From positions 18,957,513-19,021,512 of the forward strand of contig CAIIXF020000004.1 in the NCBI GenBank assembly GCA_903813345.2: DNA of 64,000 bases, written 5' to 3'. The position numbers and the translations under genes were made by a program. The DNA is from Owenia fusiformis (lineage: Eukaryota > Annelida > Polychaeta > Sabellida > Oweniidae). The first letter of the stretch is position 1; every line of letters starts with the position of its first letter. This document shows, piece by piece, positions 820-60,200 of the stretch. The notes beneath the pieces are model-generated. The model saw only the letters and a list, made by a program, of their open reading frames with translations. It did not search any database and was not told where the DNA came from.

Positions 820-945
820 AGATCAATGAGTGTGAGGATACTGAACAATATGTATGTGATTTGGAATCAACATGTATTAATACACCAGGCTCATATATCT
901 GTAAATGTAAAGATGGATATGTGGAGGTAGATGGCAAATGTGAAT
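820..945 (+). CDS. Gene 1 exon a: calcium-binding EGF module
   Basis: A phase 1-1 exon of 126 nt after a TTCTTTCAG acceptor. It encodes INEC...C...C...C.C...C with all six cysteines, and the INEC start plus the NTPGSY segment are the calcium-binding EGF consensus. Symmetric phase is typical of shuffled EGF exons. It ends at AAT|GTAAGT. The last 16 nt (930-945) and the donor are the seed of the tandem array that follows. More EGF modules may lie upstream, outside the window. Confidence 0.92.
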
Positions 946-6900: not shown

Positions 6901-9900
6901 CCTTCCATCGCTACATTTTGATTTTTGGGCATCAAACGCAGCAGTTTCTAAATCATCCACACATCTCTTAAAATTTGACTAATACGTCCCGTTAGAATGC
7001 AACTCTACGTGTATAGTGATAGACTCGGCGGGGCGTAGTGGAAGATGACGGGACGTATTGGTCAAATTTGAAGAGATGTGTGGATGATTTAGAAACTGCT
7101 GCGTTTGATGCCCAAAAATCAAGACGTAGCGATGGAAGGTTGTAATGGGAGTCCATTCTGAAATTATGGGCGAGAATGGGTAAAAGACTGGCGATATAAC
7201 TTAACTTACAGTTGAAAGTTATGAAAATTTGCTTTATCTCACAGCTGGGGACCAAAACGCCGCTAAAACGAGGTACTTTGTACACGAAAACAATGTATGG
7301 ACTGAAAGGTATTTCTGTGAAGCTTTGTACGGAACAAGTTTGAAGAAAAACGGTGAAGTGTGAGACTCACAATCCTTGATTTTCAAACACTGGGGTAGGT
7401 TTTAAATTCAAATTAACGGTTTTTTCGGGACGGAGTGGTTTCGATACGTCCCGAAGAGATACTACCGCGTGATGTAGTGGATTTCTACTAAAGTATTGTA
7501 TGCATTACGCATACATTGGTGAAAAATGAGCGATTATGATGCATCAATAATTTGCATGAAAGATTTGGAATACTCAAATTGTATATATCAGAAAATATTC
7601 AAAATTAGGATGAGAAAATTGTTGAGAATTTTGTTGGGTAAAGTTGTAAAACTGGGACAGTTTTAGAAAGATAAGTGTTTTTCAACAAATAATTATAATG
7701 TTTTTACTATATGTATAATAGAGAAATAATCAAGAAGTTATATTTGCTGTGTATTTTATCTTAAACTATATATTACTGTAAGAACTTGACTTGCTTTAAA
7801 GGGTAGCTCATTATCATATGTTATTATGGTCTTACAGCAATTATTTGATTTGTCATTCTTTGGACTTTCCTTATTAAATCAATCATGTCTATTTTTCAGG
7901 AGCTATGTGCTGAAGTATAAACTCTCATAGTAATGTTTTACTTCCAGTGTGCCAGCCAAAGTGTCAAGAATCACAGTTTGAACTTTCACCATGTTGGGAG
8001 CAAGGAGATAGAGCATGTAAAGGTAAGCTCTCTGGGAAAGACCTCTACTGGAACAAAAAAATATCCAATGTGGTTGTGCTAATTCAAAATGGCTGAATTA
8101 TCAAATACAAATACAGGTTATCGGAGATTTGGTTCAAATTTTATATGCTGATTGCTTATGGCATGAAAACCCCTGCTCAAGAAGAAATTTCCAAGATGGT
8201 TGCTGAATTCAAAATGTCATTAGAAAGAATGTAAAGTTTCATAATGCAAGTACTGGATATCAGATTTTGTCTAAATTTTTAAATATACTGATATCTAAGA
8301 AAAGATATATTGCCAATATTGCCATTTGAAATTCAAAATGTCTCTCAGTTATGTAAATACATGTATATAATTCTTGATAACTCAAATAATGGTTACCTAA
8401 ATTTTAATAGGCTTGAGACTTAGAGACATAGGAGCTGTTTTGTATGTGAAAGCAGTCTACCTAAAAGCTTTTTTAGTATTGTAGAATAGGTAAATATTCT
8501 GGGAGGTTTATTTTCTGAATTTGATTGAAAGTGTTAATGCGGAATAAAATATTGAGGGCCTAACAACAAACTATACCCCTAAACTTTCAGCTGTTCATTG
8601 GTATTATATTGTATCTTCATTCTGATTTGATCAGAGAACAATAATTGTTCATGTACTACTTCCTTTCAGACTTAAAGACACTTGGAGGAGCTGAGTTTTC
8701 TTCCAATGCCATTGTTGAAGATAGGACAAAAGTTATAGATGTTCACACTGGTCTGAAATATGCATCTGAGGATGGGAAACTGCATGGTCAAACATTAAGT
8801 TTGGCAAGAGGTAAATATACTGCATACATGTATTTCACACCTACAGAGGTTCTAGGTACATAGAGAGTGGAAATTTATAGTGTATCTAGGGAGCAATCGC
8901 CGAGGTCTGTGACTGGGATGGATACAGGCTTTATTCATCCTGGTCCTTAGGTATGGAATACATCTGTTTTGTACAGTCAGTCTATTTACAATCTAATTTT
9001 AACAATCACTAAGTACTAAAGTAGCATAAAATGATTTCAACTCTTTTGTAATATTATGAACCCTTGTAAAATATTCACCAATTGTTTCATTAATTGTATC
9101 ATCGTGCGCTAACAAGGGGTATAAAAATAGACTTCTTGTATTGAGATGAGAAAAACTATTGTTTATACTTTTTATTTTACTGAGATATAGGGATCGAGCT
9201 AGTTTTAGTTCAGATTGAGAACAACAAAAAAGAATGTGTTCTTCATCACCTATTGTAATTTTCGAATAACAGAAGTAACAAAATCGTTTCGATTTTTCTA
9301 CTTTAAAGTATCGACCCCGTTCAATTGTGCATCGATAACCGTACCTTAGCAATAGATTGTCTATAGATGGAGTTCTGTTAATTTAGATAACTTTCTCTTT
9401 ATGTGCATATTTTATTTATAACTTGTGAATTTGCCTGGAGCATCATTTGGTCTATTTGATGTCTTGCATAAATGTGCTTTGTATTCTTTTTCTGAATTTG
9501 TCATTGTAGATTTAACTACATTATCAATTTTGACTTTATCACATGTATCGATTTTTTGGATATCAATATTTTTATTTGATATTGAGCAAATCCGATTGAT
9601 AAATGAAAAGAAGCTCCAATGCCCTGATTCATGGGAGTCTTCCTCATGTTTACCAAAAATGAATCAATTGGTGACTTTAAACCAAAATTTTAAAGTTCTA
9701 ACTAATATATTAATGAGCAGCGGGTGTCTGCCCAATTCAGCCTTGGCTGACACGTTACTGCAGTTATTATTGACATAATAATACCTGTTTGCAATATCTG
9801 TTGTGTAACTTCTCAAATGGAAATGAATTATCTAAAAGTATACTTTAAGAATTTGTCTTTTAACTTTTGATTATAATATCTGTAGCCAAATCATCAGAAG

Positions 9901-12900: not shown

Positions 12901-15900
12901 TTCGCATATAATGATGCGTATTTCGCATAGTTTGATGCAAGTTCCGAATCAAATAGTTCGAGTATCGCATCATATAGTTCGATTTTTCCCACACATCATG
13001 TAATGTCCAATTTTGATACAAAATAAATTCCATAAAAAACAGCCAACTCTTCTATCATTTTTTGAGATTTCCAGCGATGCCAGTATAACTGGCTTTTGAG
13101 TAGACAAATTACTCTAGTAGCTCATGCTGGTTGAGTATGCACTTCTATGTCCAGAGATTTTCTCTTCAGAAATCATATATGTGAAGGTCATTGATCAATT
13201 TTGGCTTGGTAACATATTTGCCACTGAAGGCGAAATAGGTCAAATGGCCACGCCCTTTTTTACGCGAATACTCCCCCCATTTTTGCATCTCCAGAACCGT
13301 TGGACATAGAAGGTTGTGTGACCACTCAAAATGTCCGGAATGGCCACATTATAGGGGGTCAATAATACATATGTATTTAAAAAAGTCAATGGTTCTCAAG
13401 ATATTTGCCAAAAACTGATTTTAGCATGTTACGCACAACAGTTTTCATATATCCTGCATCATTTAAGACTGAATCCGCAGCCTCTATCTAGTCAGATCAG
13501 CGAAGGAAACAAACTTTTTTGGTTGTTGAGTTGGCCAAGAGGTCTTAGGTGAATGGGTACCCTGAACCACGAGGTTGCGAGTTTGAGACACGTGTGCTCC
13601 ATATGTTCATTCTTCTCCTGTAGAGTTGATGAGCAGCACACAAGTTGGTTAAAATCAATGTCTTTCTTTGAGTTGTGGTACTGTTCCCACCGATATTCAT
13701 CAAATGTGGAACAGTCTGTCTTCTTCAAACCGGATACAAGGAACTTCTCTGCATTCTTAATCATTTCTGGTGTAAGTTCCTCGACACCAAACCCTTCCAA
13801 AAGCGAGAGATCCATGGCTGATTTCATACCAGATAGTTTTGGACCAACTTTGCTGGTACTGTCAAGTGCATGAATGGCTGGGAGACACGATACCAAATTG
13901 TTGTCCAGTTGATCAACTAACAGGTGGACTGGAACAGTTTTCTTGTTTTTACAGTTACCAAGCTTTTCAAACAGCGTTTGTAGTTGCCAGGTCTTTTTGA
14001 TGTGGAAGATGTAGTATCAGTCACCAATCTCGCGTAATAAACTTAATCAATCCAGGATTCATATATTAGTACTCGACGCACTAACTATAATGGTAATACA
14101 GCGTAGTTTTACATTTAGAGTCGATTCTCGCAACCAATCAAATCAAGGCTTTCTGTATCACGTTTTCACTTGCGGTATATGTCATATTCACCTGCGGTAT
14201 ATGGCATATTCCGCAAGTCAGTATGACATATTCCGCAGGTGAGTATCGGGTATTCACTGACATCAATGTATCGCATATTCACTGCAGAATATCGCATACT
14301 CAACTGCGGAATATGCCATATACATACCTGCCAACCTACCGTATTTTTACGGGAATCTACCGTAAATTTTTCGTTTTTCCGTAAAAAAATGACAAATTAC
14401 CGTAAGAAAATGCCATTTTTTTCCCGTAAAAACGCCCGTAAAAATATCTACCGTATTTTTTCCGAAATCTACCGTAAATTTTTTTTAAAAACTCGTTTTT
14501 TTCCATGAGAAGAGCCGTAAAATGTACCGTATTTCTGCTAAAATCAACAGTATTTTTGTTCAAACTACCGTAAAATCTCCCGTTTTTGTTTGGAAATGCT
14601 TAAAATTGAAGTCTTTCTGTACTGTCCCTGTAATATTCATTTACCAAACCGAATATAAGGTATCGGCAGGATATTGAATCGATTCAAAATTCTAAATCAC
14701 ATTTCCCGTCCGGGAAAGTCCATAAAGTTCGTAAACAGACCGTAGAACGTTGTAGCTACGTTCATTCAGTTCGCACACAGTTTAAAACCGATTCGGCAAC
14801 GTTTTGCAGAACGCAGAGACAACTGGTTCTGGTGTGATCGCTATTTTTGTTAATTCGTTCATAAGCAGTTTTTAATACGTTCATCTCGTCTTTATTCCGT
14901 TTGCAGTACGTTGGTATCAAGTTTAGATGGGGTTGAATTGTGCGTTCGTCTGGTCTACACAACGTAACCAAGCAGTTCAATTACGTCCTTAATCAGTTTA
15001 AACCAGTTGACAATTAGTTGTACCTCGTTCTCAATACGTCCTAATATGTTACTGAATTATCCACCAAATTTCCATACGGTTGAACTCGTTCTAAAATAGT
15101 AAACATCGTGTCCCTAATCCGTGCAGAACGCATTTATTTTTATTCGGTCGAGTTGGGTCTGTCTACGAACAGAATGAACGAGCTACAAACGGACTAGATT
15201 GGGGTACTCACGGCTGCAATTTACGCCTGACTACACAATGTCGTAATACGTCCCTAGTAGGATTGAAGTACGACACTTCCGTTCGTAGTGTGTCCCCAGT
15301 GCGTCCAGGTCGTCTTAAGTACGTTATCACTCATGCTGATTGCAGAACATGACGATCACCAGAAAATTTTGAGCATGCTCTAAGTTCTTGAGGACCTACT
15401 CGTTCGAGTAGTTTCATGAAGTTTGTAACAGATCCCAAACGGTTCTTAGTGGGTTCATGGTACGTCAAATCCGTTCGTGCACAGTTGAGCCCGTTTTCAA
15501 GAACGTAGTGAGAACTAGTTCGGTGTGATAACAGGGTTACCATACTGTTTTATTCATTAGTTTTTTAGAAATCTACAGCAAAAACTACCGCATTTTTTCA
15601 AAATCTACCGCAAAACTATTGCATTTTTTCAAATTTTTCCGCAAAACTAGTTTTTTAAAAATCTACCGCAAAAACTACCGCATTTTTTCAAAATCTACCG
15701 TAAAAGTAACGCATCTTTTGCAAATCTTCCGCAAAAGTACCGGTTTTTCAAAAAATTACCGTAAAAACTACCGCATTTTTCGAAATCTACCGTAAAACTA
15801 CAGCATTTTTTCAAAATCTTCCACAAAACTACCGGTTTTTCAAATAACTACCGTAAAAACTACCGCATTTTTTCAAAATCTACCGTAAAACTACCGCATT

Positions 15901-18900
15901 TTTTCAGAATCTTCCACAAAACTAACGATTTTTCAAAAAACTACCGTAAAAATTACCGTATTTTTAAAAATCTACCGTAAAACTACCGCATTTTTCTAAA
16001 TCTTCTGTAAAACTACCGCTTTTTTAAAATTTCTACCGCAAAATTTCACTTTTTTCAAAAATCTACCCCAAACCTCTAAAACTACAGTATTTTTTAAAAA
16101 TCTACCGCAAAAATTACCGTTTTTTAAAAATTTACCGCAAAAACTACCGTTTTTTTTAATCTACCGCAAAAACTACCGCATTTTTGTTGAAAAATACCGT
16201 AAAATCTACCGCATTTTGAAAAAATCTACCGTAAAAATACAGCAATTTTAAAAAAATCTACCGCAAAATTTTGGTCTTAGGTTGGCAAGTATGCATATAC
16301 CACAGGTGAGTATGGCATATTCACCCGTATCACAAATACCGCGCAACCATGAATGTATGCCATATACCCCATAACGCTGATGACCTACCTCCTCCATGCA
16401 AATGCCCAACATTCTGCATTAGTTCCAAGACATGCACCTGCAGAGCAATGGACATAAAATGTGTTGTGTTTTGTGGATGTAGTAAAGGCACAAAGTGTAG
16501 AAATCCGCATAAATAAACTCAATTGATAGCCACACATAACATGAAAACGAGTGATAACTAGTTGTAGATACTAGTACTCATTAAAGAATGAACACAAGGA
16601 GCACATGTGTCTCAAACTCACAACCTCGTGGTTTATAATTAAACTCAATCGATATTCAATACTCATAATACATCAGCATTCCTTGTAGATACTAGATATG
16701 GTACTCATAAAAGAATGAACATACAGAGCACACGTGTCTCAAACTCGCAACCTCATGGTTTAGGGTACCCATTCACCTAAGCCAAAATTGATCAATGACC
16801 TTCACATAGATGATTTCTGAAGAGACAATCTCTGGACATAGAAGTGCATACTCAACCAGCATGAGCAACTAGAGTAAATAACCCCCAAAAATATTTAGTT
16901 TAGCTTTTTTCTTGAGATTGCAAGTCTCAAATGACATGTACTGAAACTAAAAAAGAGAGAACACTATTAAGTCCATGTTTATACTTTCACGCATACTAGA
17001 AGTAGTTAGGCAAGGTGTGTCTGATTCTAGCCAATTCGAATACAGTATTTCAAACAACTGCAGTGCATTATATAACCATTCATCCATCCAAGGTTATTCC
17101 TTATGTGGTTGTCAAGGTGACAACTAGACTACAGATTGAAATCGATGCTGCCAACTTGACCCTTGCAAAAAGTTTCATCGAAAATAAGTTCTGCCAACTT
17201 GACCCTCGCAAAAGGTCTCATTGAAAATATGTTATTTTTGTGATTTTGTATCTTTTAGGTGTTTTTGCAGAAAATATTTTGCAATGTGTGAAAAGAATTT
17301 AAGCCCAAGACTCCGTGCATTGTGGAATGACCATTTCCTTTCAGGCATTGTTTCCTAAAATTAACACTCGATGCTGTGCATCTCATGCAAATTTTGGAAA
17401 GCAACACCTTCAAGGAATGGTCATTTCACATTGCACTGAGTCCAGGGCTTAAATCCTTAACTATATGTATTAAAATGTTGTTCAATATTGTTCAGTTTAC
17501 CAATAAAATACTCAACTGGAAGTGGTAATCAGTGTCTATAGTCTGCCTTGAGTAAATATGAGCAAGCACCATTCTAACATCAGTTACCTTCAACATTATA
17601 AATTGCCATGGGTACTGCAATGATATGCTACATGAAAGCGTATTATTGGCAAAATTTTATATAATTGGTATGAATTAATGATAAATAACAGCACCAATCC
17701 TGTTACTTTCGGGGTACCCTGTCTAGTTGATGCAGCATATTCTATGATAGAAATCTGTCAGAGATCCTTCTGTCACATATATTCTGTCATAGATGTGCCT
17801 AAGGCAAATGTATGTGAGATCCACTTATATATTATGTTGCAGATGTATCAAGTCCAATGTCACTGAGATAATACTGTCACCCATATTTAACAACCAGAGA
17901 ACCCAATTCACATGCCACATAGAGAAACAACAATCTACGATGTTTGAAATTGTATACTCTGTACTCTACAATGGCCGACCAATCAATGGCAAGAGAGTAA
18001 AAGTTATCAAGAAACATCGTGAGGACAGGGGCCACTTCAAGTATGACATATCTTGCATAATATATCTATCAACAGAAACAATATCTGATTTCTCTGTAAG
18101 GATCGTTTTCATGGACATTTTTCTCTACAATTATTGCAGCCTCTTGGCTCACATATCATGTATGTGCTTTTCACAAAATTAACACATTTTTTTCAGGTAC
18201 AACTTCCTGCAGGGTTATTATGAATCTAATGTCTTTGCTCCTGTGGATTTAGTACGAGGGGACACTGTAGCTCAGATGATGTCAGCAGGTCATTATGATG
18301 TCACAGGGAAGCAATTGAATAGTTCTAGTATGAGTGGGAAAACCCTAGATGTTAGACCTGTTACCCCCTTTGCTATGACTCTTGGGACATGGAGTAAGTA
18401 ATATACCATGTTTGTTTTATGTCACCACCAATAGTGTGGACATATTGGTATTGTCTCCAATTTTTTGTTGATGGTGTTCAGCAGTTGGTGTCTGGCGTTT
18501 GGCAGCTTGTTGCAATATTGAAAAGCCAGTTAGTCATCCATCCATTTATTCCATCTATAACTGGAGTACCAAAGAATCAAATCACATGGCATGACAAAAG
18601 TTATTTTTAACAGTCCAAGATTTGACCATGGGTGTTTTTTATTAGGGATGTCACGGACAAAATATTTCGGGGCAGGATGTGAATTATCCATTTCAGGACA
18701 GGACGGGACATAACCAATAAAATAATTTAAAACACTAGTTCAACAACTTACATTTTCTGTCTTCTTCCGGTGATGCTTATGCAGCGCAGGCTGCGTAAGT
18801 TGCGCAAAAACTGAGATTAATTTTAAGTTGTTACCTTTCTTGCCGATGAAGTTCTTTGTTATTATTTAAATTAAAGCATATTTCAAAGGGAAACACTGTT

Positions 18901-21900
18901 ATTGATAAAACTGCATGTTCTGTCCTGAATTTTTGTTTATTATTATCACTTATAGTAATTGCCACTAGATGGCATTTGCGCATGAACGTAATCCGGCAGA
19001 TAAGTTGTAAAAACGGAAGAAAATTCTAGTTAAGGTACAGCTGGAAAGTAACATTTTGGTATAAAATTGCTATACCAGCACATGTTATTTTCTGGTACAA
19101 AATAAAGTATGAAGACATGTGTCAATTGCCTTGCTTTTTTCAGGAAAGTATCATTACATTGTCTTCTTTAAGAATATCTAGTAGGAGTTCAATGGGAACT
19201 CCAGGAAATTCTGATATTTCACACTTTCTATTTTTCCAAATTTTCTTTCAAAGTTTCCAGACAACACAGGTGCTACCATTGACCTGTTTCCAGGTTTCCT
19301 AAAAGTAGACAGTGTAATGATACTTTGCTGAAAAAAGCAAGGAAATACACACATGCCTTCATACTTAATTTTGTACCAGAAAATAACATGTGCAGGTATA
19401 GCAATTTTTTACCAAAATGTTACTTTCCAGCTGAACCTTAAGATCATATTTATCGTGAATTAGGGAAGCTTTAGGGTCATATACAGGAGGAATATTATAT
19501 CCTGAACATGGACCGAAATCTTCGGTACACAAGGGTTATCCCGTCGCGTGCCGAGACCAAAGTCCGAAAACATGACATCCCTATTTCTTATAATATATGG
19601 TAATAATAACAAATAATACTTAATTGTTTTGATTTCAGAGCAACAGGGCTGCAACTCTAATGTACTTGAAAGAATGATTATACCAGATGATGGCACTTAC
19701 ATGAAACAATCTCCAGAGCTTGACATGTCTTGGCACACAACCCATCAATATAGAGTCCTTAACAAAACAGCCACTCCATTTATATATTTCAATGTTAACA
19801 AGAACGAATCAATTTTGGAGCCATTTTTCGAAAAATCAACCATCAAAGATGATAGCACTTTATTGGGTTCATTGACAAGAAATGATTCTCATTGGTCAAT
19901 TGAAGTGTCTGGGGAGCTGAAAACCTGCCCTGGGTACATATCTGTCAAACTGTTTGACCCTAATTACCCAGACATTGCTTTGTATAACTATGATGTTGGA
20001 GTAATGTGCCCAAAGAAATTTACAATTAAATTTGGGGTACCCCTCGGGAAGTCCATGGGATATGATAAAAGATTTTTGGTTGTACTGAATGACTCCCACC
20101 GTAAACTTAAACTGACAATTTATAGGAAGGCTCCTCCACAAGCACACAATAAAGGTGAGACTACAATCAATAGCATATATACAGGGTGTTCAGGAAATAA
20201 CATATATGCAGGGTGTTCAGGAAAAAGCATATATACAGGGTGTTCAGGAAATAGCATATGTACAGGGTGTTCAGGAAATAGCATATATGTAGGGTGTTCA
20301 GGAAATAGCATATATACAGGGTGTTCAGGAAATAGCATATATGTAGGGTGTTCAGGAAATAGCATATATACAAGGTGTTCAGGAAAAAGCATATATACAG
20401 GGTGTTCAGGAAATAGCATATATACAGGGTGTTCAGGAAATAGCATATATACAGGGTGTTCAGGAAATAGCATATATACAGGGTGTTCAGGAAATAGCAT
20501 ATATGTAGGGTGTTCAGGAAATAGCATATATACAGGGTGTTCAGGAAATAGCATATATGTAGGGTGTTCACGAAATAGCATATATACAAGGTGTCCAGGA
20601 AAAAGCATATATACAGGGTGTTCAGGAAATAGCATATATGCAGGGTGTTCAGGAAATAGCATATATACAGGGTGTTCAGGAAATAGCATACATGTAGGGT
20701 GTTCAGGAAATAGCATATATACAGGGTGTTCAGGAAATAGCATATATGTAGGGTGTTCAGGAAATAGCATATATACAGGGTGTTCAGGTAATAACATATA
20801 TACAGGGTGTTCAGGAAATAGCATATATACAGGGTGTTCATGAAATAACATATATACAGGGTGTTCAGGAAATAACATATATACAGGGTGTTCAGGAAAT
20901 AGCATATATACAGGGTGTTCATGAAATAGCATATATACAGGGTGTTCAGGAAATAGCATATATACAGGGTGTTCAGGAAATAACATATATACAGGGTGTT
21001 CAGGAAAAAGCATATATACAGGGTGTTCAGGAAATTGCATATATGTAGGGTGTTCAGGAAATAGCATATATACAGGGTGTTCAGGAAATAGCATATATAC
21101 AGGGTCTTCAGGAAAAAGCATATATACAGGGTGTTAGGAAATAGCATACATATGTAGAGCAACAAGTAAAATTCAAGAATGCTTTGACTTTGAATACAAC
21201 CAAAAGACAAGGTTAAATCCTTTTCAAAAATTGCCCATTTTTATTCAGATGCTTCAGAGAGGATAAGATCTAGCAGATCTAGCAGCTCTGTGCTGAGACA
21301 AGATGTGTCTGTAAATGTGGCCCACCCTGTACTTCTGGTGATAGGTGCTATTATTATTGGTCTCTCTTGTGTTCTCCTGATTGGATATGTTAAGCATGCA
21401 GGTATAAATATAGATATTAATGGTGATTCATATTTATAAGTATTACATACCCAGCGAAGCATTTGTATTGATGTCAATGGAGCTGAAGGTCGGCTATATA
21501 TTCCTGTATAGCCGCCAAACCTTTTACCATGACAATCTTATGACGTCATCGGGACGACATGTTTCATTTCTTCCTAATTTCACTCTTACACAGACACTGG
21601 GCGTCATTGATATAACGTAGCCATGATATAAAAGTATGTAATACAACAGTTATGTCCGTATCATTGAATATATGCCTTCGGTCTGTCGTAATATAACCCT
21701 CGCAAGCTCGGGCTATATTGGTGACAGACCTCAGGCATATATTCAATGATAGGGACATAACTGCTAAGTATTTAATTTGATTAATGTGCATGAAAATTGT
21801 AAAATAACTGTTTCTCATGTGTAAAAATAATGTCATTTTATTCATTTCTCGTCAGTATGTGCATTTCACTTGAATTGATTACTGGTTTTCAGAGAATCCC

Positions 21901-24900: not shown

Positions 24901-27900
24901 GACCAAAGACAAAAATCTTGAGTTCAGAATACTTTACACCAAACCATATCTAAAAATATACATTATTATTAAATGGCTATGTTGTCGATACTTCATGATC
25001 TATGAATATTATTGTTTCAAAATATAAAATATAAAGCTTTATTATATTTAGAGAAGGTAATTCCAAAATTGGAGAGTTGCTATTTTGTTTCATAATAAGA
25101 TATTTGAACAATAGATATCATTTCCCAAGATATCTCTCATCTCATTCACAGGGACAGGTTCAACACATATGCCCAGAATTCAGCTATACGACTTCTAGAA
25201 GACATTAAACAGTCTTATAGGACCATTGAGGGCAACCACTGGCTAAAAGCTGCTCATAGCATGCATGAAGCCATCCGTGATCTACGCTCAGGCTCTGGTG
25301 AAGAAACTAAGCCTTTTATGGAGTGGATTGGTCTGGAGGAGAACCTAGAGAGTATGACAGCAGGTTTGTCTTTTATAACATATTATTGACAGTTCATGTT
25401 TTAGAATATAAATTGTTAAAATAAAATTCATCCCTCAACTGTTGTCTATGATTTTTATGTTGTAATCCTTGATTATATTTTAACCCATTCGTTAATATTT
25501 TAATTAAGGAATTCACATTTCTGCAATCAAGTATAAGTTATTGGTATTTTTATTCATAAAATATATAGTTTGAAAATCATTATGCATTTAATTGTATGTA
25601 TATATATATTTTTATAGTTAAGAACAGTAAATAAGAGTTTGATCAATTCAAAAGCATGAATTAGTATAGCAGTTAATGCTGGCTGGTGCTAGATTTCATT
25701 GCTAAATAAAAAATAAACAAGCTTTATTACTTTCATCTTATATCTTTATACATGTAGTGACTTAAAGTGACATTCCTTACTAGCCTGCTGTTTTCTTATG
25801 ATGATATGACAATATAGATAAACTATCAATACATGTGTAAATATACATGAACGTTTTTGGTGAGTTGAGATTTGATCATTTCAATTTGATTGTTCATTTC
25901 AACTGGGCTGCCTGTGTTTTAAGATACCTAACAAGAAGTGATGCCACCATCATTATTTGTATGTAACAGGATGGGAAAAAGGATCTATAGTTTCTATAGA
26001 GTTGAACTTTTGCTACTCTCCATAACATAACTTTCTGTTAGAAATCTTCAAAGATGGCAGCATCACTGGTGATCCACTAGATTACGCTGGTTACCGAAAA
26101 GGTTCGTTTCTGTAACAAAATGTTGGAATGTCGAAGGTACGATTTTTCTTTTTTCCTTATTTCACACGTTGTAGGCAGAATTCCCACGACATTTTTATCA
26201 CAAACATATATCAGTATCTTATGTTTAAGAAAATGTACATATTTGCGAACAAATAGTTCAGAAGACAACAGAATCATCGGTTTAATTCGTCACTTAAGTT
26301 ACAGAAACGGTATTTTGAAAAACAGTTAGGATCTGCACTTTTAACCCATACCATTTCTGGAACTTAAGTGAGGAATAAAATAAACGATTCTGTTGTCTTC
26401 TGAGCTATTTTTTCGCAAACATGTACATTTTCTAAAACATATGATGCTGATACACGTTTGTGTGAAGAAATATCGTGGGGATTCTGCTTACAACGTGAAG
26501 TAAGGAAAAAATTTAAATCGTACCTTCGACGTTCCGGCATTTTGTTACCGAAATGAACCAGTTCGGTAACCAGTGTAATCGAGTGGATCACCTGTGAGCA
26601 TACTGGAAATGACCAGTGAATTTAGATAATCAACTCAGATCATACCAAAATATTTTTGTGATGGCATTTGGTTTGAAAGGAATATACCTTTAAGTGAGAA
26701 AATATATTTGGATATAATGCAGATAGAACAGAGAGAGCAAATGTTTATTTTAACTCTGCATGTATAGACTTTATTACATTATTTACTTTGCATTCTCACA
26801 TAGCTAAGTACGATATATCACACTCAAGCCAACCTGAACACAGTATAGTAGAGCAATTCTATTTATTATATAAATGATATGACATCATATGTTATGCTTG
26901 ATGGCATAGAAGTACACTGCATGGCAATATTACACTGATAAATTCACTGTATGTCAAGATGTACAAACATACACCATGGGGTTTTAAAAGACAACAAAGC
27001 CCATGAATACATATACGATAGGAAATACATCCTCTTAGAAGTGATATGACCTAACCATTCGGTCACTCTTGAATATATCATATACTCAGTTGAGTATAAA
27101 CATGATCTACAGAATCAGCCATTTTATAGTATACATGTACAATATGCTTTTGTTTCTTCATATATGGGAAATAACACGGTCTTTGATTATTTTTATCCAA
27201 ATCAGCAGTCAAAATATTCTTCTTTTCTTCTTCTTCTTCAAAATAGAATGTGCAATGAGAAATGGCTATGTGTATGAGTTCACTCATGTTCACGTCTCAT
27301 CCAAACACGCTGGTATTAGCACAACCATTGCTTTTCCTCTTAATGAATCATTGTACTGCTTCAACTAGAATTGAGGCTGCAATAGGAAATAGTTTGGTTT
27401 ATTAACAGGTTGATTTATTAACAATTAGAAAATGCAATGTCAATGAATTTTATGCAGAAAAAGTACCATTTCTTGGAAACAATCAAAAAGAAAACATGCA
27501 GAATTTTTGATTTCACTTCGTATCCATTTCACTTTTGAGTATGGATCTTTCTAACATTACAAATCCAATCATGGGTATGTCTTACATCAGTGCACCAAAT
27601 ATCTGTCGGTGTTTCTCATCACTTATCGTATCCATATTGTGTAGGTCAGATTTCTTTGTACAGGGTGATATAGTACGCTTACACTACACTATCCATTATT
27701 CAAACACATGCACCTTCATTTCCTTGACCTTTTTGTTTCAGGAGATACATGTATATTAACTATATTACTATCCGAATGTGGAAAATTCAAAATATCTTAA
27801 TTGAAGTCATCTCCCTTTTATAACTCACAATGAACTGTTGTCTTGTTCACTATGAACTAGAAGGTCCAAATAAGGCACAGTTCTGTTGGATTTATTTGTC

Positions 27901-30900
27901 TTTTGCAACTCTAACTCTTTTATCATATAACTTACACTGAACTGTTGTCTTGTTCACTATGAATTAGAAGGTCCAAGTAAGGCACAGTTCTGTTGGATTT
28001 ATTTGTCTTTTGCAACTCTAACTCTTTTATCATATAAATTACAATGTTCTATTGTCTTGTTCACTATGAATTAGAAGGTCCAAATAAGGCAAAGTTCTGT
28101 TGGATTCATTTGTCTTTTGCAACTCTAACTCTTTTATCATATAACTTACACTGAACTGTTGTCTTGTTCACTATGAATTAGAAGGTCCAAGTAAGGCACA
28201 GTTCTGTTGGATTTATTTGTCTTTTGCAACTCTAACTCTTTTATCATATAAATTACAATGTTCTATTGTCTTGTTCACTATGAATTAGAAGGTCCAAATA
28301 AGGCACAGTTCTGTTGGATTTATTTGTCTTTTGCAACTCTAACTCTTTTATCATATAACTTACACTGAACTGTTGTCTTGTTCACTATGAATTAGAAGGT
28401 CCAAGTAAGGCACAGTTCTGTTGGATTTATTTGTCTTTTGCAACTCTAACTCTTTTATCATATAAATTACAATGTTCTATTGTCTTGTTCACTATGAATT
28501 AGAAGGTCCAAGTAAGGCACAGTTCTGTTGGATTTATTTGTCTTTTGCAACTCTAACTCTTTTATCATATAAATTACAATGTTCTATTGTCTTGTTCACT
28601 ATGAATTAGAAGGTCCAAATAAGGCAAAGTTCTGTTGGATCCATTTGTCTTTTGCAACTTTAACTCATCAGGGTATATCTCACTTCCAAAATCTTTAAAT
28701 TTAGTATATAACTGTCTGTCTTATTAAATAAACATTATATCTTTTTTAAAGATAAACAATATCTCATCCAACACTTCCTCCCACAAAGCCATTCTCCAAA
28801 CATTCTGAAATATAAATGGACCATGGTTTTGAAAAATTTCCTTTAAACTTGATGCAGACTATAAATTGTTGAGTTCAATTGAGATATACACGATGTCCTT
28901 CAATGCTATGGGAATTATTAGAAATGTCACCTAGCCAGTGCTTTTGCCTTGATTTATATTTATTATTACACTAGGCCAGTGATTTGTTCTTATATACAAT
29001 AAACATTTTAGTTTTTATCAATTTTAATTTGGAATGATGCTATTTACACAGACTGATCATTGTATGCACATGTGGTGACATCTGTAAGATAGAATAGTGA
29101 ACTAATTATTATTCTGAAAAAGAATAATTCTTGGCAATTTTTAATATTTTGGTTACATTGATTAGCATACACATGGAATACCAAACTATTCATGCAATGG
29201 ATCGGGACTGATAATACATTGGAAAACTTCATTTCAGGTAGTAATGAATCTGATTTCACTTTACTTTTGCTGTGATGACAAATCACAGTCCTTATTGTAT
29301 TAGAAAATAGATTTACAGTATTTCATCTTGAACTAACACAGACTGTAAAACGTGCCCTTAATAGTAGCAGAATTTAGTGTGAAATAATAGTTCATTGATG
29401 GAACGAAGCTCATTATGTATCACAATTATCCCCCCCCCCCATTCAAAGCATATAAGGAATCATCTTCATGTCTATAATTTTAGGGCTATTGCGCTCAAAT
29501 CACAACAAATGGTGTTCTGATGATACGTGAAAAGTTTGATGCTTCGTTCTTTGAATAAACTCTTGGCCTGTTTTTCACAATTGATTCTGTAACTGTACTT
29601 CAGTATGTTTGCTTATACGTATTTCAAAATAGCTAAATAGCCACTTTTATCGTAAATAGCACAAACGTATTAGATCTGTTTGCTTTACAGGTAGTTTTAT
29701 AGAGGTTAGTAGAGACTAAGCTTTCTTGAAAAATCAATAAGAGAGTATGTTATGTGTTGCGCAATGCGCATACATAGAAATTATCCTATATGAGGTTCAG
29801 GATATTGGGATGATCACAAGGCTTATATAATATATCTGCCTCAAGGGCTGTAGGTCCCAAGGGCAGATACATTATATTGGACAAGGGATAATCCCAATAT
29901 CCTAAAGTGACGATCTATACTCTCAAAGGCCTGAGTTCATTCGACAAATTATTCCAGAATATTCATGTCCAGGTTTGTTTTCTTGGCCATGGTCAGTTAT
30001 TCCTGTTCTCTCAAAAATCCATCCACATTTATATTCTAGAATCTTTGATTATTAACAGGGATAAGATTAAGTATACCCCTTTCCCTTCTTTAAATCATCA
30101 AATGGAGTGATTGTAGCCATTGCCATTCCCAGTACTTAGTTTGGTGCAAATGAATTCATTTGAAATTACTATAAAATTAGTTTTGTTTTGAGTGTTTTTA
30201 AATATCAAACAAATTGAATTTGCCAGCCACAATCTACAAGTTGTAACTTACCACTGTCATGGGAGTTGATAACATGATACCATTTGTATTAGCCTAAATA
30301 TTGAAGGTTTCATGTAGCATATTACTCTGTTAAAAGTAAATCATATCTTTTAAATAATGATTTTATGAAAGTGCTTTCTCTTTTATAGAATGTAAATTGT
30401 TTGCTTAAGGTACTAATAATGAGCAATAATTGTCTTATACTTTTTTGCTATTCATTTTAGAAGTACATATATAATATTAGTTTTAGTAATACTGAATAAA
30501 TGTATATAATAAATAATACTGATATACATTTTAACTGCTATCCCACCATGCAGTTTGAGTAGAGTCATACTCATAGACAAGCTGTCCCTATATTTGTTCA
30601 TCCAACCATCTAAATGTCTGTCCAGGCATTAACTCAAATATTAATTGATGGATTTGGTTCAAATTTTATGTCCTGATGACTTTGAAATATAATACCTCAG
30701 CTGCAGAAGAAATTTTCAAGATGGCCACTAAATTTTAAATGACCACAATTTTACATGAAAAGGAAATTTTCAATAACTTAAATATCAGATTTGGCTTATC
30801 AATGGGCCATATAACTAAAACCTTTGGAATATAATGGAGTTTTAACTCGACACATATTTACATAACTTCTTTATTATTAAAAGAAGTTCTAATATCATCC

Positions 30901-48200: not shown

Positions 48201-51200
48201 TCTTCATCAATATATATGTATTGTAATATCCTACTGCTATGTTGTAGGTCTGTGTAAAGCATCTGATGGGGAAGGGAACATAGCACTAGGGTCAACAATC
48301 TTCATCAATGATATACCTGAAGATTATAAAAATGGTAAGTACAGTACAGTTGACTATACTTATACATATATGTAGAAAAATTGATAGCTCTACCTAGGTT
48401 TTTATTTGTGAATACCATTATCTGTTCTAAATGCCTGTGTTTTATGTTACAGGTACAGTCTTGTCTGTACTCAACATAACTAAATGACTGTATTTCATGT
48501 TACAGGTACAGTCTTGTCTGTACTAAACATAACTAAATGGCTGTATTTCATGTTACAGGTAGTCTTGTCTCTAGTAAACAGAACTGTCTGTACTCAACAT
48601 AACTAAATGACTGTATTTCATGTTACAGGTACAGTCTTGTCTGTACTTTAACATAACTAAATGGCTGTATTTCATGTTACAGGTACGGTCTTGTCTCTAG
48701 TAAACAGAACTAAATGACTGTATTTCATGTTACAGGCACAGTCTTGTCTGTGCTTAACAGAACTAAATGACTGTATTTCATATTACAGGTACAGTCTTGT
48801 CTGTACTAAACATAACTAAATGACTGTATTTCATGTTACAGGTACAGTTACTATTACGAGGCTTCTGGACTTGTCTGGTTTAAACATCATTCTTGCCCAG
48901 TTTGCCATTCTCTCAAGACCCTCAAGAAGCCACTTCATGCCTAACTAACATAACTAAATGACTGTATTTCATGTTACAGGTACAGTTACTATTACGAGGC
49001 TTCTGGACTTGTCTGGTTTAAACATCATTCTTGCCCAGTTTGCCATTCTCTCAAGTCCCTCAAGAAGCCACTTCATGCCTAACTAACATAACTAAATGAC
49101 TGTATTTCATGTTACATGTACAGTCTTGTCTGTACTAAACATAACTAAATGACTGTATTTCATGTTACAGGTACAGTCTTGTCTGTACTAAACATAACTA
49201 AATGACTGTATTTCATGTTACAGGTACAGTCTTGTCTCTAGTAAACAGAACTAAATGACTGTATTTCATGTTGCAGGCACAGTCTTGTCTGTACTAAACA
49301 TAACTAAATGACTGTATTTCATGTTACAGGTACAGTCTTGTCTCTAGTAAACAGAACTAAATGACTGTATTTCATGTTACAGGCACAGTCTTGTCTGTAC
49401 TAAACATAGCAAAATGACTGTATTTCATGTTACAGGCACAGTCTTGTCTGTACTAAACATAACTAAATGACTGTATTTCATGTTACAGGTACAATCTTGT
49501 CTGTACTAAACATAACTAAATGACTGTATTTCATGTTACAGGTACAGTCTTGTCTGTACTAAACATAACAAAATGACTGTATTTCATGTTACAGGTACAG
49601 TCTTGTCTGTACTAAACATAACTAAATGGCTGTATTTCATGTTACAGGTACAGTCTTATCTGTACTAAACATAACTAAATGACTGTATTTCATGTTACAG
49701 GTACAGTCTTGTCTGTACTAAACATAACAAAATGACTGTATTTCATGTTACAGGTACAGTCTTGTCTGTACTAAACATAACTAAATGGCTGTATTTCATG
49801 TTACAGGTACAGTCTTATCTGTACTAAACATAACTAAATGACTGTATTTCATGTTACAGGTACAATCTTGTCTGTACTAAACATAACTTAATGACTGTAT
49901 TTCATGTTACAGGTACAGTCTTGTCTCTAGTAAGCAGAACTAAATGACTGTATTTCATGTTACAGGACAGTCTTGTCTGAACTAAACATAACTAATTGAC
50001 TGTATTTCATGTTACAGCAATCTTGTCTGTACTAAACATAACTAAATGACTGTATTTCATGTTACAGGTACAGTCTTGTCTCTAGTAAACAGAACTAAAT
50101 GACTGTATTTCATGTTACAGACACAGTCTTGTCTGTACTAAACATAACTAAATGACTGTATTTCATGTTACAGGTACAGTCTTGTCTGTACTTAACATAA
50201 CAAAATGACTGTATTTCATGTTACAGGTACAGTCTTGTCTGTACTAAACATAACTAAATGGCTGTATTTCATGTTACAGGTACAGTCTTGTCTGTACTAA
50301 ACATAACTAAATGACTGTATTTCATGTTACAGGTACAGTCTTGTCTGTACTAAACAGAACTAAATGACTGTATTTCATGTTACAGGTACAGTCTTGTCTG
50401 TACTCAACATAACTAAATGACTGTATTTCATGTTACAGGTACAGTCTTGTCTGTACTAAACATAACTGGAGACAATAGTGAAATAGAACTACAAATTACT
50501 GATATTAGTGATCCTCACATAGGCTTCCATCCTGCTACACGGGAACTGGTCCTTTTGAGACCACTGGAAAGAGATGGAGAATCAGGACAGAGCTCTATCA
50601 GCATCAAACTGTCCTGTAGGGACCTCAGTGCAGAGCAAAGCATGGTGGGTAGTTTCCGTATAGGAAATTAGGTATTGTAACTTTAATAACATGATGAATA
50701 TCAACGGCCCAGGTAGCCCTGGTTCCTTGCATAATTTACAGGAGTTGCATTAAAATCACAGATGTTGGCCAGATCGTTTTGTAGTAGGATCTCATAGGCT
50801 CAAAGAATAATACACAAGATATGACACCAAATTGGAAAATTTAAAAAAAAGTGACCACCTTTCAAAACGTTCCTTATACAAAATGGTACCTGCTTCCCTG
50901 TGGCACTGATTTTGCACTTATTTTATAGCTGAGATCTTCATCTTTCTATTTCTACTTGTTTGGTTTGAGTAAATAACCTATGGTTGCAGTTATCTGACTT
51001 TTAATACGGCGAATATTTTTCACGAAATCCGGACTCTTGTGTATCCAAATATCATTGTACTGATGACGTCACATTTCTGGAACCACAGGAGCACCATTCA
51101 GATTTGGACAGACAAGAGTCTGTAAAATAGTATAAAATATCACTGTTTTGGCCTCTTATCAACGCAGTATTGCTTGAATAACGATCATTGGTGATAAAAA

Positions 51201-54200
51201 AGTTAAAGAATAACAAGACGCTTCAATTGAGGTATGATTTGTCTCATATTTTTCAGAAATGGCTCCACAATCGTCATTTTAAAATTTGAAATTTTCTGAG
51301 GTGTCTCATCTTGAGGAATATTTATTGAGCTACTGATTCTACTACAAAAGAATCTGGCCGGGATCTATGATTAAAATTGTTAACTGACATCAAACAAAAT
51401 GATAATATTATATTATTGTTATTATAAACTAGAGAGAAAGTGCTCTTTAGCTAGTTATCTGTCTTGCCCACAACAGTTGAAGATATACCATATTATCTCA
51501 GCCTTTCTTTCATTACAGATTTTAATCTCTGTCATCATCACTATAAAAGATGTCAATGATTCACCACCAAAATTTAGTGAAGCGGAGTACTCAGTCAATA
51601 TCAGTGAGGTATGTGTAATATTCTAAATTTTCTTTGTTTTATCATGTAATTGACAAGTTTACATAATTAAAAAATGGGAATTTTGCTAATAGACACACAT
51701 ATTCCAATAAATGTTCATGCTACCTTTTTCTTGTAGCCAGAATAATGAAAAATGGTGAATTATTAATTCACTGTCATTGAGGACATGATGGTTTTAAGTC
51801 ATGAATTAAAGGCTACAATGAACATTATCCTGATGCTATTGGATTTGCAATGTATCATTATGTCCAAGAGTTCAAAACAGTTTTTGTTCAGTTGGTTTTC
51901 ACTTTTTGGCATGGGGAGATGGCTATCTATCGATCAGAGCTTGCATAATTGTATACAAAAGAAATGATTACATAATCATGAGATAATGTTACACAATGAA
52001 AGTACAAAATCATGATTATGCAACCTTATACAATCATTAATGTTTTGGATAAGAGCCGAGAGCCATTGATCACTAATTCAGATATTTCTGTCAAGACCAG
52101 TCAGTGACAACATTGCAGCAGCTACTGTTGCATCATAACAATTAACCTACTAAAATAAATATAGAATAATGTAATTGAGGCAAGGAAAGAAAGATCAATA
52201 CCCGGTGATTTCAGCGGGAAGTGGTGTTTCGTTCAGTGGATGAGCTGCGCGCGAACGCATAAATGTGATTATCCAATATAATTAGGGGAGGGCTATTTGA
52301 AGTAGTTTTTGGTCTCAGGCGCGACCCAGGGCTGTTGTCTTAAGGACATTTCGTTGAAAATGAGCCATTCGGCTGATAATTGGTAAGAGTTTGCGATCTT
52401 ATAATGTATAACTGTTACTCAGACACATATTTTGACACAATTCTGTTGGAAATAAGCTTTGAACCGAGAGATATTCACGATTGATATGCACATTTTTGAT
52501 TGTGCCATTGCTTTTCTATTGCACAATCCATGTATTGATAGAAGAAACATTAATAATGCAGATTGGTTTACCTTCAATACATGGCAGACACTACATATCG
52601 GTCTATTAATACCAGTTTGTGCCTTAAATAGTTTTATATTTCCATCCACGGCCTGGAGCCTGGGTGTGTTTGTCTCTTATGTGTATGCTTGTGCATGGAC
52701 TTCTAATCACTAGCAGAATTTAACATGATGCAAACTCGACATTATAACTCATGCTGTAACATTTTGACTTCGCTGGAAAACAATAGGAATTATTTTTCTT
52801 GCCAATCAATCATGAATCACAATCAAAATTTCAGAATGATGTAGAAATACAGAATATTTAAACATCAAAGCTGAAAGTTAAAAGCTAATCTGTCAATTTT
52901 CTGTCTGCAAAAGAGCGTTTACATTTGACACAATAACAGACTGAGGCTTTGAAATCTAGGATTCCCCAGGAAAATATGACGTCATATTAATTAGCATAAG
53001 GATTTCCCTATTGGTCTGGGTTGAGCCTTGTTCGAAAACACAATCCATTAATACATGCTAATTTCTAAGGAGATAGGAAGTGTATAACGTGTTTATTGAT
53101 TTTGTTTAAAGATTTAATCAATTATCAAATTGTTAAAGTGGATAAAGTGGTCACACTTGCTTCAATTCATAGCGAAATCGACGGATAGAAACTGACCGAA
53201 TTCCCGATATCCTACCCCGTATTACTGTAGGCTATAAGCACAGTGACCTACAGAGGGCGCTATCACAAACAAGTACTGCACGAACCGATAAATTCCCAGG
53301 TATTGTAACGCCCTTGATTGAGGTATCATCTATAGGAGAATTCGGGAGACGCATTATGTGAGAGATCGCTTTATGTTATTCGGGATTTGATTGATCAAAA
53401 CAGTATTTTCTTGATTGATTCTCATTTTTGATCCACAGGTCATATTTATGATCAATCAAAATAATACATATAAAGAAATCTTATCTGATAATTTTCACAT
53501 TAGTTAGAAATCTGATAACAAAATGATGATATCAAATTTAACAGTTATCTTTGCCCCTCTGGTCATTTCTGAGTGAATGACACTTCAATCAATAAAGCAC
53601 AAGTGGCAAAATCAGAAAATACAAAACATGGCAGTAAATAACTAATATGTGCTTATGATAGAAATTTGTCTGACATTCAAAGCCAAATCCAAAACCTGCA
53701 AATTAATGCTATAATGGTTGTGAGCATACATTGCCATGGATTTACATTATTAATTGTATTCAGCAATTTACTCTCTGAATCAAGTTTTATTGTACAATAC
53801 ATAAAGAGTTTTCCATGATAATGCCTTTATGGGATATTTTTTGCTGCCAGTTAAGTATTAACATATAATATATAGTACAGACAGATGCCAACTGCCCCAC
53901 ATTTGAATTAATTACAAAAATGGAAATATCATTGGTATCAAACAAAGACCTAAAGCATGTTTCCGGGGAACTAATTTATTTTGTCTCACCTACCTCATAC
54001 AATGGAAACTCAGATGAAGGATGATTAAAATTAGACACCTCACTGGACTGATCATCAAAAGAACACACTTTCCAAATTAGCAAAATCATTTAAAGTAGCT
54101 GGGTGTGTATTACAAACCATTGCATTAATCATGAACAAATTGAAACATTAGACAGAAACACCCAAAGTTAAATTAATATTCTGCTTCTACATATTTCACA

Positions 54201-57200: not shown

Positions 57201-60200
57201 ATAATTTAGATCACTGACTTCATGTATGCATGTCTCATTCAATATAAACTTCTCACTTCTCCTTTAATTCACATTTTATAAACTAATAACCGTCATATTC
57301 TATTTACCTAGGTCAACATAAAAAGTTCTTTATGTTTGTTTATTTTAAAACCTGAAACACATTCTTCATTATGTACATACCCATTAATGAAATATTTCCC
57401 TGTTCATGCTTTAAATGGTGAAAAACAGTAAAAAAGAGAGGATTGATAGGTAAATACAGGTAGATAAGCAAACACGAAGTGAAGATTTAAATGTTAAATA
57501 CACAAAATACAAAAAAATATAAGAGACAAAATGTCAAAGGAACATCAAATTGGTTAATAAGGTTGTATTTTTACGTTTAATGAAGTGTAATTGCATTTTT
57601 GAATGTTATCAAAATTGATGAAGTGCTGCTAAGTTATTACCATAAATTCATGTAGTTCTCTTGAATTTATCTCACACTTCAGAAAATTCACATGAGATAT
57701 CAATTTCAATTTAAGAATACTGTTTTGTTGCCTTTGAGTATTTTTTATACATTGGAATTTTAAATTGAAGTGTCATAAGATATTCATCAGTTTGATATCA
57801 TTGAAGCTTATAGACCTAAAGATATTATTTACATTTCATTTTTGAGTCATTTATTTTTACTAGGTAATCGTTCATATTGTGTACTATATTAAGCTAATTA
57901 TATTTTTGTATATATCTACTATTGTGGATATTCTTTTTATATAAAGTGTTACCCAATAGCCATTGATTCCCTCTAAAATGTAATAGTATTGTCTAGTTAT
58001 GTATACTCGTATGTAGCATATAAAATACATATACCATTAGAAAGTCAACTTAACTTCTGTTGTAATTATATTAAATGCAGCTATTCCTCAATCGTTTTGT
58101 CTTTTATATTTCAAATTCTAGTTAGCACCTGTAGGCATGACGTTGATTGGATCAATTGAAGCTAAAGACGCAGACCCGGATAATTCGTACATCACCTATT
58201 CCATTCTACCAGACACTTTCTCAGTAAGTTCCCTTTGCAACATGCATGTACTTCAGTAATATGAATTGAACATCTTATATTTAACAGAAACGCTGATGAT
58301 AACTTACATATTACAATGGTAACTTTAATAACTTAAGAAAGAAATGACTCATCAGTAAGTTGAGGAGTTTGGCATATAAGGGTTTAATGTCCAGTTAGAA
58401 GAAAACATTCAATCCAATTAAAGCCTTGTACATCTTAACTCCTAGGCATTCTAATTACCCTTCTAGTAAACAGGAAATTCACTGATCCTCACCTAGTTAC
58501 CCTGACGATACGTCAGTGTGGCGGGACAACTTCTGGGATTTGAATTCGGTAAGATATTTTTATTTCTCGATTTACACCTTCTTATAAGTCAAGTTGTGGA
58601 TAATAAATTGGCTCAAGGGTTTTTTTGGCTGGTGGTTTTAGGTTTGGTTTGTTAATGAATATGCAATTCACATATTTAGTTCCTCGCTTTTGTTACACTG
58701 ATGATCGGCATGAATATTGCCAATATTACACTGACGTAGAGCTTTGATTACACTGATGAATGAATAATGTTATAGAGAAAGTTGATCTAAGTTGATACTA
58801 GGCCTGGTAATATGTATGAAAATCAAGTCGAATACATCAAGTAAAGAGATTAGCTCTTCAGGTTGTTACCTAATATAATGTACAATGTTAAAAATGGTTC
58901 GTCAGTGTGACAACAGCTCCAAATCAAACATTTGTTGATGTAACATTGGTCGTTCATCAGTGTAACAAAAGTGAGGGACTAAACATATGAATTGCGTCTT
59001 CGTTAACATACCAAACCTAAAATCATCAATGCATTCTCAAACTAGACTATCTTCCTTAATTTCGGGCCAATTTATTATCCACAATGTGACTTATAAGTAT
59101 ATGTGTAAATCGAGAAATAAAAATTTCTCACCGAAACCGAGTCCCGGAAGTTGTTCCGCCATGATACACTGAAGTATCATCTTGGTAACTAGGTGAGGAC
59201 CAGTGAAATTGGCCTTGTCAAACATTTAGTCTCTTAAAAGAGTAAAAATATATGACTAAGAAATTCACAAGTATACTACCAATAGTGTAAAAATAAATCA
59301 TTTGATGCCTATATTTATTTTATTATTTGGTTTCAGAAAGAACTGGTAGTAAGTAGGAAATTGTGTAACTTCTAGTAACACAGTTTCATTGGTGGCTTTA
59401 TTTATTTGTCACCTGGGAAGCCAAATCTTATACATATTTTCTTGTAACAGAGTAAAACATTACCATGGAAACTGGGTTATTTTAGTCGCCATGGAAATAA
59501 TACCATAACGCAATTGTGACACGTAATTTTACATATATTACCATGACATGCGTAACCATGGTAACCAAGTCATTTGTCAGGTACCTTTTTAATTGTTGCT
59601 TTATCCTTGCATTTATTAGTTTCCATGGTATTCTTGCTCATTGGATTTCCCAAGTGTTCCAGTCTTAACCATTCCTACTAGGGGTACCACGATACGAGAA
59701 ATTGAATCTCGATACGTATCTACGATACTTACCTCACGATACGATACGAACGATACGATACAATGATACATCGTAAATTGAAGTAAAACTGAACTTTATT
59801 TAATTTTTCAAACTTGTAAAGCCGGAAGTACTTCAGCCGGATTACGTTTATTTCACATCACGACAAAAAAAGGTGTAAAATATGCTAACATCGATTAAAA
59901 CATCTTAACGACGTGTGGTATTCGGGAACTAGAGGGGCAAACGAAGGTGGCAAGCAAGATATGTAATACTATGACTGTCTGTCATCGCTAAGCGCCAAGT
60001 TTTTCCCTTCAAGGAGGGACTTCCGGTCAAAAAACGATACGACCGATATTCATTTTATGTATCGATACAGCTCGTATCGGAGGTGAATTGCTCGAGCGCT
60101 CGAGCACTCGAGCGCTCGTGGTACCCCTAATTCCTACATGATAATTGTCTCACCAACTGAAAATCATGTTAATGTACTAGATAACATCACACACAGGTAC

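What the first reader, a model, noticed from the sequence alone, without database searches (positions are those of the whole stretch)
48428..50438. Tandem array nucleated on a 3' splice site: ~36 copies of an acceptor plus exon start
The mirror case in the second gene. Each 53-bp unit carries a TTTCATGTTACAG acceptor and the first 28 nt of cadherin exon 3, ending in TGA if used. Only the last acceptor keeps the frame. An unusual splice-site choice problem, perhaps affecting expression through decay of mis-spliced transcripts.
Basis: partly seen in the sequence, partly recalled or inferred. Interest (0 to 1): 0.82.

Follow-up and report, generated by a model that had tools for sequence, protein, structure and literature searches.

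The report
Splice acceptor repeated thirty-five times
In a cadherin gene of an animal-like genome, the end of an intron and the start of the next exon were copied about 35 times in a row, so the cell faces dozens of near-identical splice points of which only the last leads on into the protein, and other genes of the same genome carry similar arrays.

Summary
The array is real: 35 acceptor-like copies between 48436 and 50438 (34 ending in AG), mostly 53 bp apart, each with 25 nt of intron end and 28 nt of exon start. Only the last copy opens into the exon (50439-50644); the other 34 copies run into stops. Joined to 48248-48334, the peptide aligns with protocadherin-15 across the junction. Arrays are neither clearly enriched nor depleted at acceptors. 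Best reading: minisatellites seeded at random, tolerated because the exon-adjacent acceptor is used. That choice is inferred; no RNA was available, and the 118-nt distance to the first acceptor argues the other way. Closest known: donor-side VNTRs of ABCA7 and F7. New variant of a known kind.

The parts
   Evidence: tag|GTCTG start and gtaagt donor, open frame LCKASDGEGNIALGSTIFINDIPEDYKN; aligned with PCDH15 from residue 19 of the joined peptide
48335..48452 (+). donor of the upstream exon to the first acceptor of the array: a 118-nt intron if that acceptor is used
48427..50467 (+). tandem array of the 3' splice site: 35 copies, 34 with AG, modal period 53 bp; first copy has a diverged polypyrimidine stretch (TGTGTTTTATGTTACAG)
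   Evidence: TRF; counts
48825..49100 (+). two consecutive units (138 bp each) that carry an extra 85 bp; the insert belongs to a dispersed repeat
   Evidence: 13 further genome matches, best 98% over 90 bp at C8:24861298
49101..49117 (+). the one copy with a broken acceptor (ACAT)
50422..50438 (+). last acceptor, adjacent to the exon body; identical to the array consensus
   Evidence: only open continuation; first cadherin repeat of PCDH15 type
51519..51608 (+). next exon of the cadherin gene
   Evidence: contains DVNDSPP, a calcium-binding cadherin motif (name recalled)
58122..58223 (+). further exon of the cadherin gene

Best explanation
A segment of 53 bp spanning the last 25 nt of an intron and the first 28 nt of the next exon of a protocadherin-15-like gene was duplicated in tandem and then expanded to 35 copies, as minisatellites do. 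It was probably not singled out because it is a splice site: minisatellites are common in this genome, seem to fall without regard to splice sites, and those that straddle a splice site persist. The working mRNA is made with the last acceptor, the one next to the 206-nt exon body. The 33 intact acceptors upstream are then intron. Steps shown: anatomy, frame, gene family, recurrence in other genes. Steps inferred: that splicing picks the last copy (exon definition is the likely reason) and that upstream use is rare and leads to decay.
For: Only the last copy opens, and the join of 48334 to 50439 aligns with PCDH15 through the junction (KNGTVL against RNGTIL). Other genes carry arrays of the same build, with a coding exon after the last copy; this position was part of how I called them, so it is not independent evidence. 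Some of these genes are ones that animals rarely lose (recalled): Sec3, COP-beta', septin, V-ATPase d, with 31, 4, 32 and 13 copies, so correct splicing must work often enough. The last acceptor is no richer in pyrimidines than the upstream copies (0.688 against 0.676, p = 0.57, 19 loci), so position rather than strength would have to decide. Arrays per site are not lower at real acceptors (1.8-2.3 per 1000) than at the reversed octamer (1.2 per 1000; p 0.59 and 0.21), so there is no sign of strong selection against them.
Against: No RNA was seen, so use of the last acceptor is not shown. The distance from the donor to the first acceptor is only 118 nt, against 2104 nt to the last; in human data upstream acceptors are preferred overall, strongly so with short introns, and exon definition only reduces that (PMC9225289, section 9 read). 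In four other loci whose upstream exon I recognised by eye, the first acceptor is likewise 117-270 nt from the donor. 33 of the 47 scanned arrays had no Pfam match at 0.001 after the last copy, so many arrays with acceptor-like units are not on a recognisable exon. The number of arrays compared is small; a twofold effect of selection would be missed.
Confidence: 0.6

Rival explanations
1. Resplicing through a chain of mini-introns. Each consensus unit is itself a 53-nt GT...AG segment (GTACAG...TTACAG), so if an upstream acceptor is joined first, the GT that starts the exon copy can act as a donor and the rest of the array is removed later. Any acceptor choice is then corrected.
For: 28 of 35 copies read AG|GT. 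A single duplication across a 3' intron-exon boundary did create a new spliced intron in a potato gene (PMC4974935, passages read).
Against: GTACAG lacks the usual +4 A and +5 G of a donor (consensus recalled). In the other exon-linked arrays that start with GT the first six exon bases are mostly poor donors too, and arrays whose exon starts with GA or AA also occur on recognised exons (L046, L049, L052, L053, L056, L059), so resplicing cannot be the general reason why arrays are tolerated.
Confidence: 0.15
2. Upstream acceptors are used substantially; the array lowers the output of the gene through transcripts with early stops, and its length tunes expression.
For: 118-nt distance to the first acceptor; the frame from every upstream copy meets a stop. 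In ABCA7 a donor-side VNTR goes with lower expression as it lengthens, and about 2% of transcripts retain one unit (PMC5954066, passages read).
Against: A heavy cost would be expected in conserved genes with 30 or more copies, yet arrays at acceptors are not detectably depleted. In ABCA7 unit retention was low and did not change with VNTR length.
Confidence: 0.18
3. The upstream acceptors are kept by selection as a regulatory device, for example as binding sites or decoys.
For: In this array the 17-nt acceptor core varies less than the rest: 3 variant cells of 459 against 43 of 972 in 27 full units, first and last excluded.
Against: Across 17 arrays taken as exon-linked the AG is not clearly less variable than the other six bases of the searched octamer (5 variant types in 34 positions against 25 in 102), so the low variation may come from how the loci were found. 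RNA folding shows no shared structure (15 loci, window z = -1.4).
Confidence: 0.05
4. Assembly artefact.
For: Tandem arrays are error-prone in assembly and only one assembly was available.
Against: Units of this array differ from their consensus at about 4% of bases, two units share an insert, and unrelated genes show the same pattern. Copy number could still be wrong.
Confidence: 0.02

Closest known systems
ABCA7 intron 18 VNTR (human; 25-bp unit, about 12-427 copies; PMC5954066, passages read)
   Same: minisatellite whose unit contains the native splice site of a coding gene, so dozens of similar sites compete; misuse gives frameshift and stop
   Different: donor side, not acceptor side; copy number there is known to vary and to correlate with expression and exon 19 skipping; here no RNA and no population data
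F7 intron 7 37-bp repeats (human; PMC6627357, passage read)
   Same: the native site lies in one end copy of an array of near-identical sites and the exon-adjacent one is used
   Different: donor side, variable number of 37-bp copies; only the most upstream site is used there, which for a donor is the exon-adjacent one
Intron gain by tandem duplication across a 3' intron-exon boundary (potato RdRp; PMC4974935, passages read) and the AGGT model (Rogers, Hellsten; as cited in that paper)
   Same: tandem duplication that carries branch site, pyrimidine tract, AG and exon start
   Different: one duplication and a new intron detected there; 35 copies and no evidence of a new intron here
Recursive splice sites or ratchet points (search listing only)
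   Same: AG immediately followed by GT
   Different: 2.1-kb intron, weak donor GTACAG, tandem copies instead of single sites in long introns

Membership tests
VNTR that includes a native splice site (ABCA7/F7 type) | repeat unit contains the native splice site and neighbouring gene sequence | tested here: met
   25 nt intron + 28 nt exon per unit; last copy continues into the exon
VNTR that includes a native splice site (ABCA7/F7 type) | copy number varies between individuals | not testable with these tools
   one assembly only
VNTR that includes a native splice site (ABCA7/F7 type) | the exon-adjacent copy is the main site used | not testable with these tools
   frame and homology agree with it; RNA needed
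Intron gain by tandem duplication | duplicated segment carries splicing signals, including AGGT | tested here: met
   28 of 35 copies AG|GT
Intron gain by tandem duplication | a new intron is spliced between copies | not testable with these tools
   no RNA
Recursive splice site | acceptor followed at once by a good donor (GTRAGT; consensus recalled) | tested here: not met
   GTACAG in the consensus unit
Protocadherin-15-like cadherin gene | N-terminal cadherin repeat alignable to the first repeat of PCDH15 | tested here: met
   residues 19-140 against residues 21-149 of 11iy_C, domain E 2e-6; other cadherins also match, and Pfam Cadherin at 25.4 bits is under its cut-off of 28.8
Protocadherin-15-like cadherin gene | full domain order and membrane-proximal region | not tested
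   only four exons were joined

The most novel reading that the evidence does not exclude
This genome carries hundreds of arrays in which the splice site itself is part of the minisatellite unit, on both acceptor and donor sides, in conserved genes, with up to 30 or so near-identical acceptors that can begin 120-270 nt after the donor; its splicing nevertheless reads from the exon outward and takes the adjacent copy. It would be a large natural experiment that separates exon definition from first-AG and short-intron rules. Rough extrapolation: 7-9 exon-linked TTTCAGGT arrays in 122.9 of 498 Mb, divided by the share of all acceptors that this octamer represents (assumed about 8%), gives roughly 350-450 acceptor arrays.
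Probability: 0.43. Interest if true: 0.78.

Novelty: new variant of a known kind. Interest (0 to 1): 0.62.

Why it matters
How a spliceosome chooses among identical acceptors is usually tested with a few engineered copies. Here nature supplies up to 35, with the first 118 nt from the donor and the last next to the exon, so intron-centred and exon-centred rules predict opposite ends of the array. The recurrence in other genes makes the question statistical rather than anecdotal, and it suggests that splice-site repeats like the one linked to disease in ABCA7 may be a common and mostly tolerated class of minisatellite. Automatic gene models of such loci may well be wrong.

Tried and rejected
Special nucleation at splice sites: not supported; rates per site do not differ significantly from the reversed octamer (18 against 7 loci in C1, C2 and C3 up to 24.93 Mb, loci counted by eye from the listings).

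AG|GT as the reason for tolerance: rejected as a general reason, since TTTCAGGA arrays are at 12 loci in the same 122.9 Mb (by eye) and several are exon-linked.

Constraint on upstream AGs: a first count suggested it (11 of 514 mismatching cells against 707 of 12,804), but against equally conditioned bases of the octamer the difference is small.

RNA hairpin GTACAG...CTGTAC at the exon start: perfect in 18 of 35 copies plus one with both sides changed, but no trend over 15 loci.

Calls that went wrong: one search took a false last copy in L016, L041 and L046 and undercounted the window; I use for the 19 other loci and for the window. One search failed to read the locus files as separate records and was replaced.

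Names by eye or recall only: alanyl-tRNA synthetase (L025; Pfam tRNA_SAD E 0.034; no PDB match), VAC14 (L033; no Pfam match; no PDB match of use), THEM6 (L017; 17 residues, too short to search), L065 (no match of use). These four are in the 19 loci but not in the 15 counted as supported. The V-ATPase match came from a PDB search that the control peptides did not get.

COX1 was not found in the assembly, so the species was not settled. Owenia fusiformis is my guess: published 505.8 Mb in 12 chromosome-scale scaffolds (PMC9977687, passages read), here 498.3 Mb with contig sizes C1-C6 (with C4 and C5) in an order that would fit names 1, 10, 11, 12, 2, 3. Not verified.

Literature: no acceptor-side array turned up in searches (open-licence papers only, listings); 46 led to an earthworm metallothionein paper with intronic minisatellites, not splice-site arrays (passages read). 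Reed and Maniatis is known to me here only through PMC9225289 (passages). CBS and its 31-bp VNTR were searched but no paper on it was opened, so it is left out.

Full report
What is there. Between 48427 and 50467 of the window lies a tandem array with a modal unit of 53 bp. A 17-nt acceptor core, TGTATTTCATGTTACAG, occurs 35 times with up to four substitutions; 34 copies end in AG, 31 carry the exact last 13 bases, and 28 of 35 are followed by GT. Two neighbouring units carry an 85-bp insert that belongs to a dispersed repeat. A regular unit consists of 25 nt of intron end and 28 nt of exon start. The last copy runs on into a 206-nt exon.

Gene. The exons at 48248-48334, 50439-50644, 51519-51608 and 58122-58223 join in one frame. 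The peptide matches cadherins among solved structures; residues 19-140 align with the first repeat of protocadherin-15 (domain E 2e-6), with KNGT against RNGT spanning the splice junction. The best total score is to a CELSR1 chain with many repeats, and Pfam's Cadherin model is below its cut-off, so the family is cadherin and the closer label protocadherin-15-like is probable, not proven.

Which acceptor. From each of the 34 upstream copies the frame meets a stop; from the last it stays open over the 210 nt examined. The first acceptor lies 118 nt after the donor and would give an exon of 2192 nt; the last gives an intron of 2104 nt and an exon of 206 nt. In human data upstream acceptors are preferred, strongly with short introns, and less so under exon definition (PMC9225289, section 9). 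The intron-centred and exon-centred rules therefore point to opposite ends of this array. Frame and homology say the last must be used in working transcripts; how often the others are used cannot be told without RNA.

Not alone. Patterns of three acceptor octamers spaced 28-58 nt apart gave 214 + 225 matches for TTTCAGGT (reversed control 65 + 11), 217 + 110 for TTACAGGT (control 95 + 160) and 91 + 172 for TTTCAGGA (control 63 + 31). Matches overlap within arrays, and only the first 100 places of each search are listed. I fetched every other listed locus for the first two (18 and 20) and 20 of 22 for the third, leaving out two places of one cluster on C3. From the last copy of each I took the longest of three frames; 48 of 58 had 20 residues or more, one was a duplicate, 47 were scanned. 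Pfam matched 14 of 47 at E 0.001 or better: 7tm_3, UPRTase, Sec3_C-term, SSF, HMA, zinc finger, CRAL_TRIO, guanylate cyclase, EF-hand, Neur_chan_LBD, P450, TPR_COPA_B, SBF_like, septin; 33 of 47 did not. Of these 33, one is V-ATPase subunit d by PDB sequence (E 7e-10). Opposite-strand control peptides gave 0 of 31 at 0.001 in Pfam (best 0.042); they are shorter (median ORF 20 against 36 residues), which weakens the control. By octamer the 15 are 7 of 18, 2 of 20 and 6 of 20 loci fetched.

Donor side. AGGTAAGT in the same arrangement gave 426 + 146 matches (control 188 + 140). Seven loci appear in the listed part, which ends early on C3; 5 of 7 end an exon with a Pfam match at 0.001 (Muted, NIF, Neur_chan_LBD, UDP-glucose dehydrogenase, mL52), one more is a tetraspanin at 0.016, one has no match. 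No control peptides were run for these.

Chance or preference. TTTCAGGT occurs 40,366 times and its reversal 24,220 times in the genome, which suggests that about 40% are real acceptors, if the reversal is a fair baseline. In C1, C2 and C3 to 24.93 Mb there are 18 arrays against 7: rate ratio 1.5, p = 0.41. Of the 18, 7 (Pfam) to 9 (with two by eye) sit on exons, as expected from 40%. Minisatellites thus seem to fall on splice sites about as often as elsewhere, and to be kept. Numbers are small; a twofold difference would be missed.

Outcome of misuse elsewhere. In 19 arrays taken as exon-linked (the 15 plus L017, L025, L033 and L065, named by eye) 227 of 248 intact upstream acceptors would lead to a stop and 21 would leave the frame open, 17 of these in the guanylate cyclase gene, whose 36-bp unit has no stop. 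The last acceptor has no richer pyrimidine stretch than the others, and upstream AGs are not clearly more conserved than other searched bases.

Explanation. I favour random tandem duplication across the boundary, expansion, and correct splicing at the exon-adjacent copy. Resplicing through 53-nt mini-introns has a precedent with one duplication in potato (PMC4974935) and is not excluded, but GTACAG is a poor donor and arrays with GA or AA exon starts also occur on recognised exons. Donor-side relatives are known in ABCA7 (PMC5954066) and F7 (PMC6627357). An acceptor-side array of this size, and its recurrence through one genome, I did not find in the searches listed under Tried and rejected.

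Counts were mended (43 of 972 variant cells, five TGG units, 33 of 47 without Pfam match), and I now say that the position of the exon after the last copy was part of how loci were called. For that reason I lowered the main confidence from 0.62 to 0.60 and the novel case from 0.45 to 0.43, and raised two rivals by 0.01 each.

Noticed in passing
930-5609: Mirror array at a donor: 46 copies (up to 5 substitutions) of a 96-97-bp unit, 45 with GTAAGT or GTGAGT, at the end of an EGF-type exon (INECEDTEQYVCDLESTCINTPGSYICKCKDGYVEVDGKCEC); an element with inverted ends near 4950-5265 interrupts it.
   Followed up: partly
48191 and 48289: A 21-nt piece of the upstream exon (GGGTCAACAATCTTCATCAAT, up to one substitution) is also present 98 bp upstream in the intron: another small local duplication.
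   Followed up: no
48842-49100: The 85-bp insert of units 8 and 9 matches one distant place on C8 at 98% and 12 more at 78-95% over shorter stretches: a dispersed repeat, apparently captured before a unit was duplicated.
   Followed up: partly
L034 (C4:6143100-6145400): Guanylate cyclase acceptor array with a 36-bp unit without stops in frame: misuse would insert multiples of 12 residues instead of truncating.
   Followed up: no
L056 (C3:2522400-2524700): Septin acceptor array of 32 copies in which 10 of 31 upstream copies have lost the AG; among the other 18 arrays only L034 lost one.
   Followed up: no
about 6590-7470: Long near-palindromic stretch (inverted copies around CGGGACGTATCGAAACCACTCCGTCCCG), seen by eye; looks like a foldback element.
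   Followed up: no
20169-21152; 27819-28666; 15561-16268: Further minisatellites (27 bp x 36.5, 107 bp x 7.9, 31 bp x 22.7): the window is rich in them.
   Followed up: no
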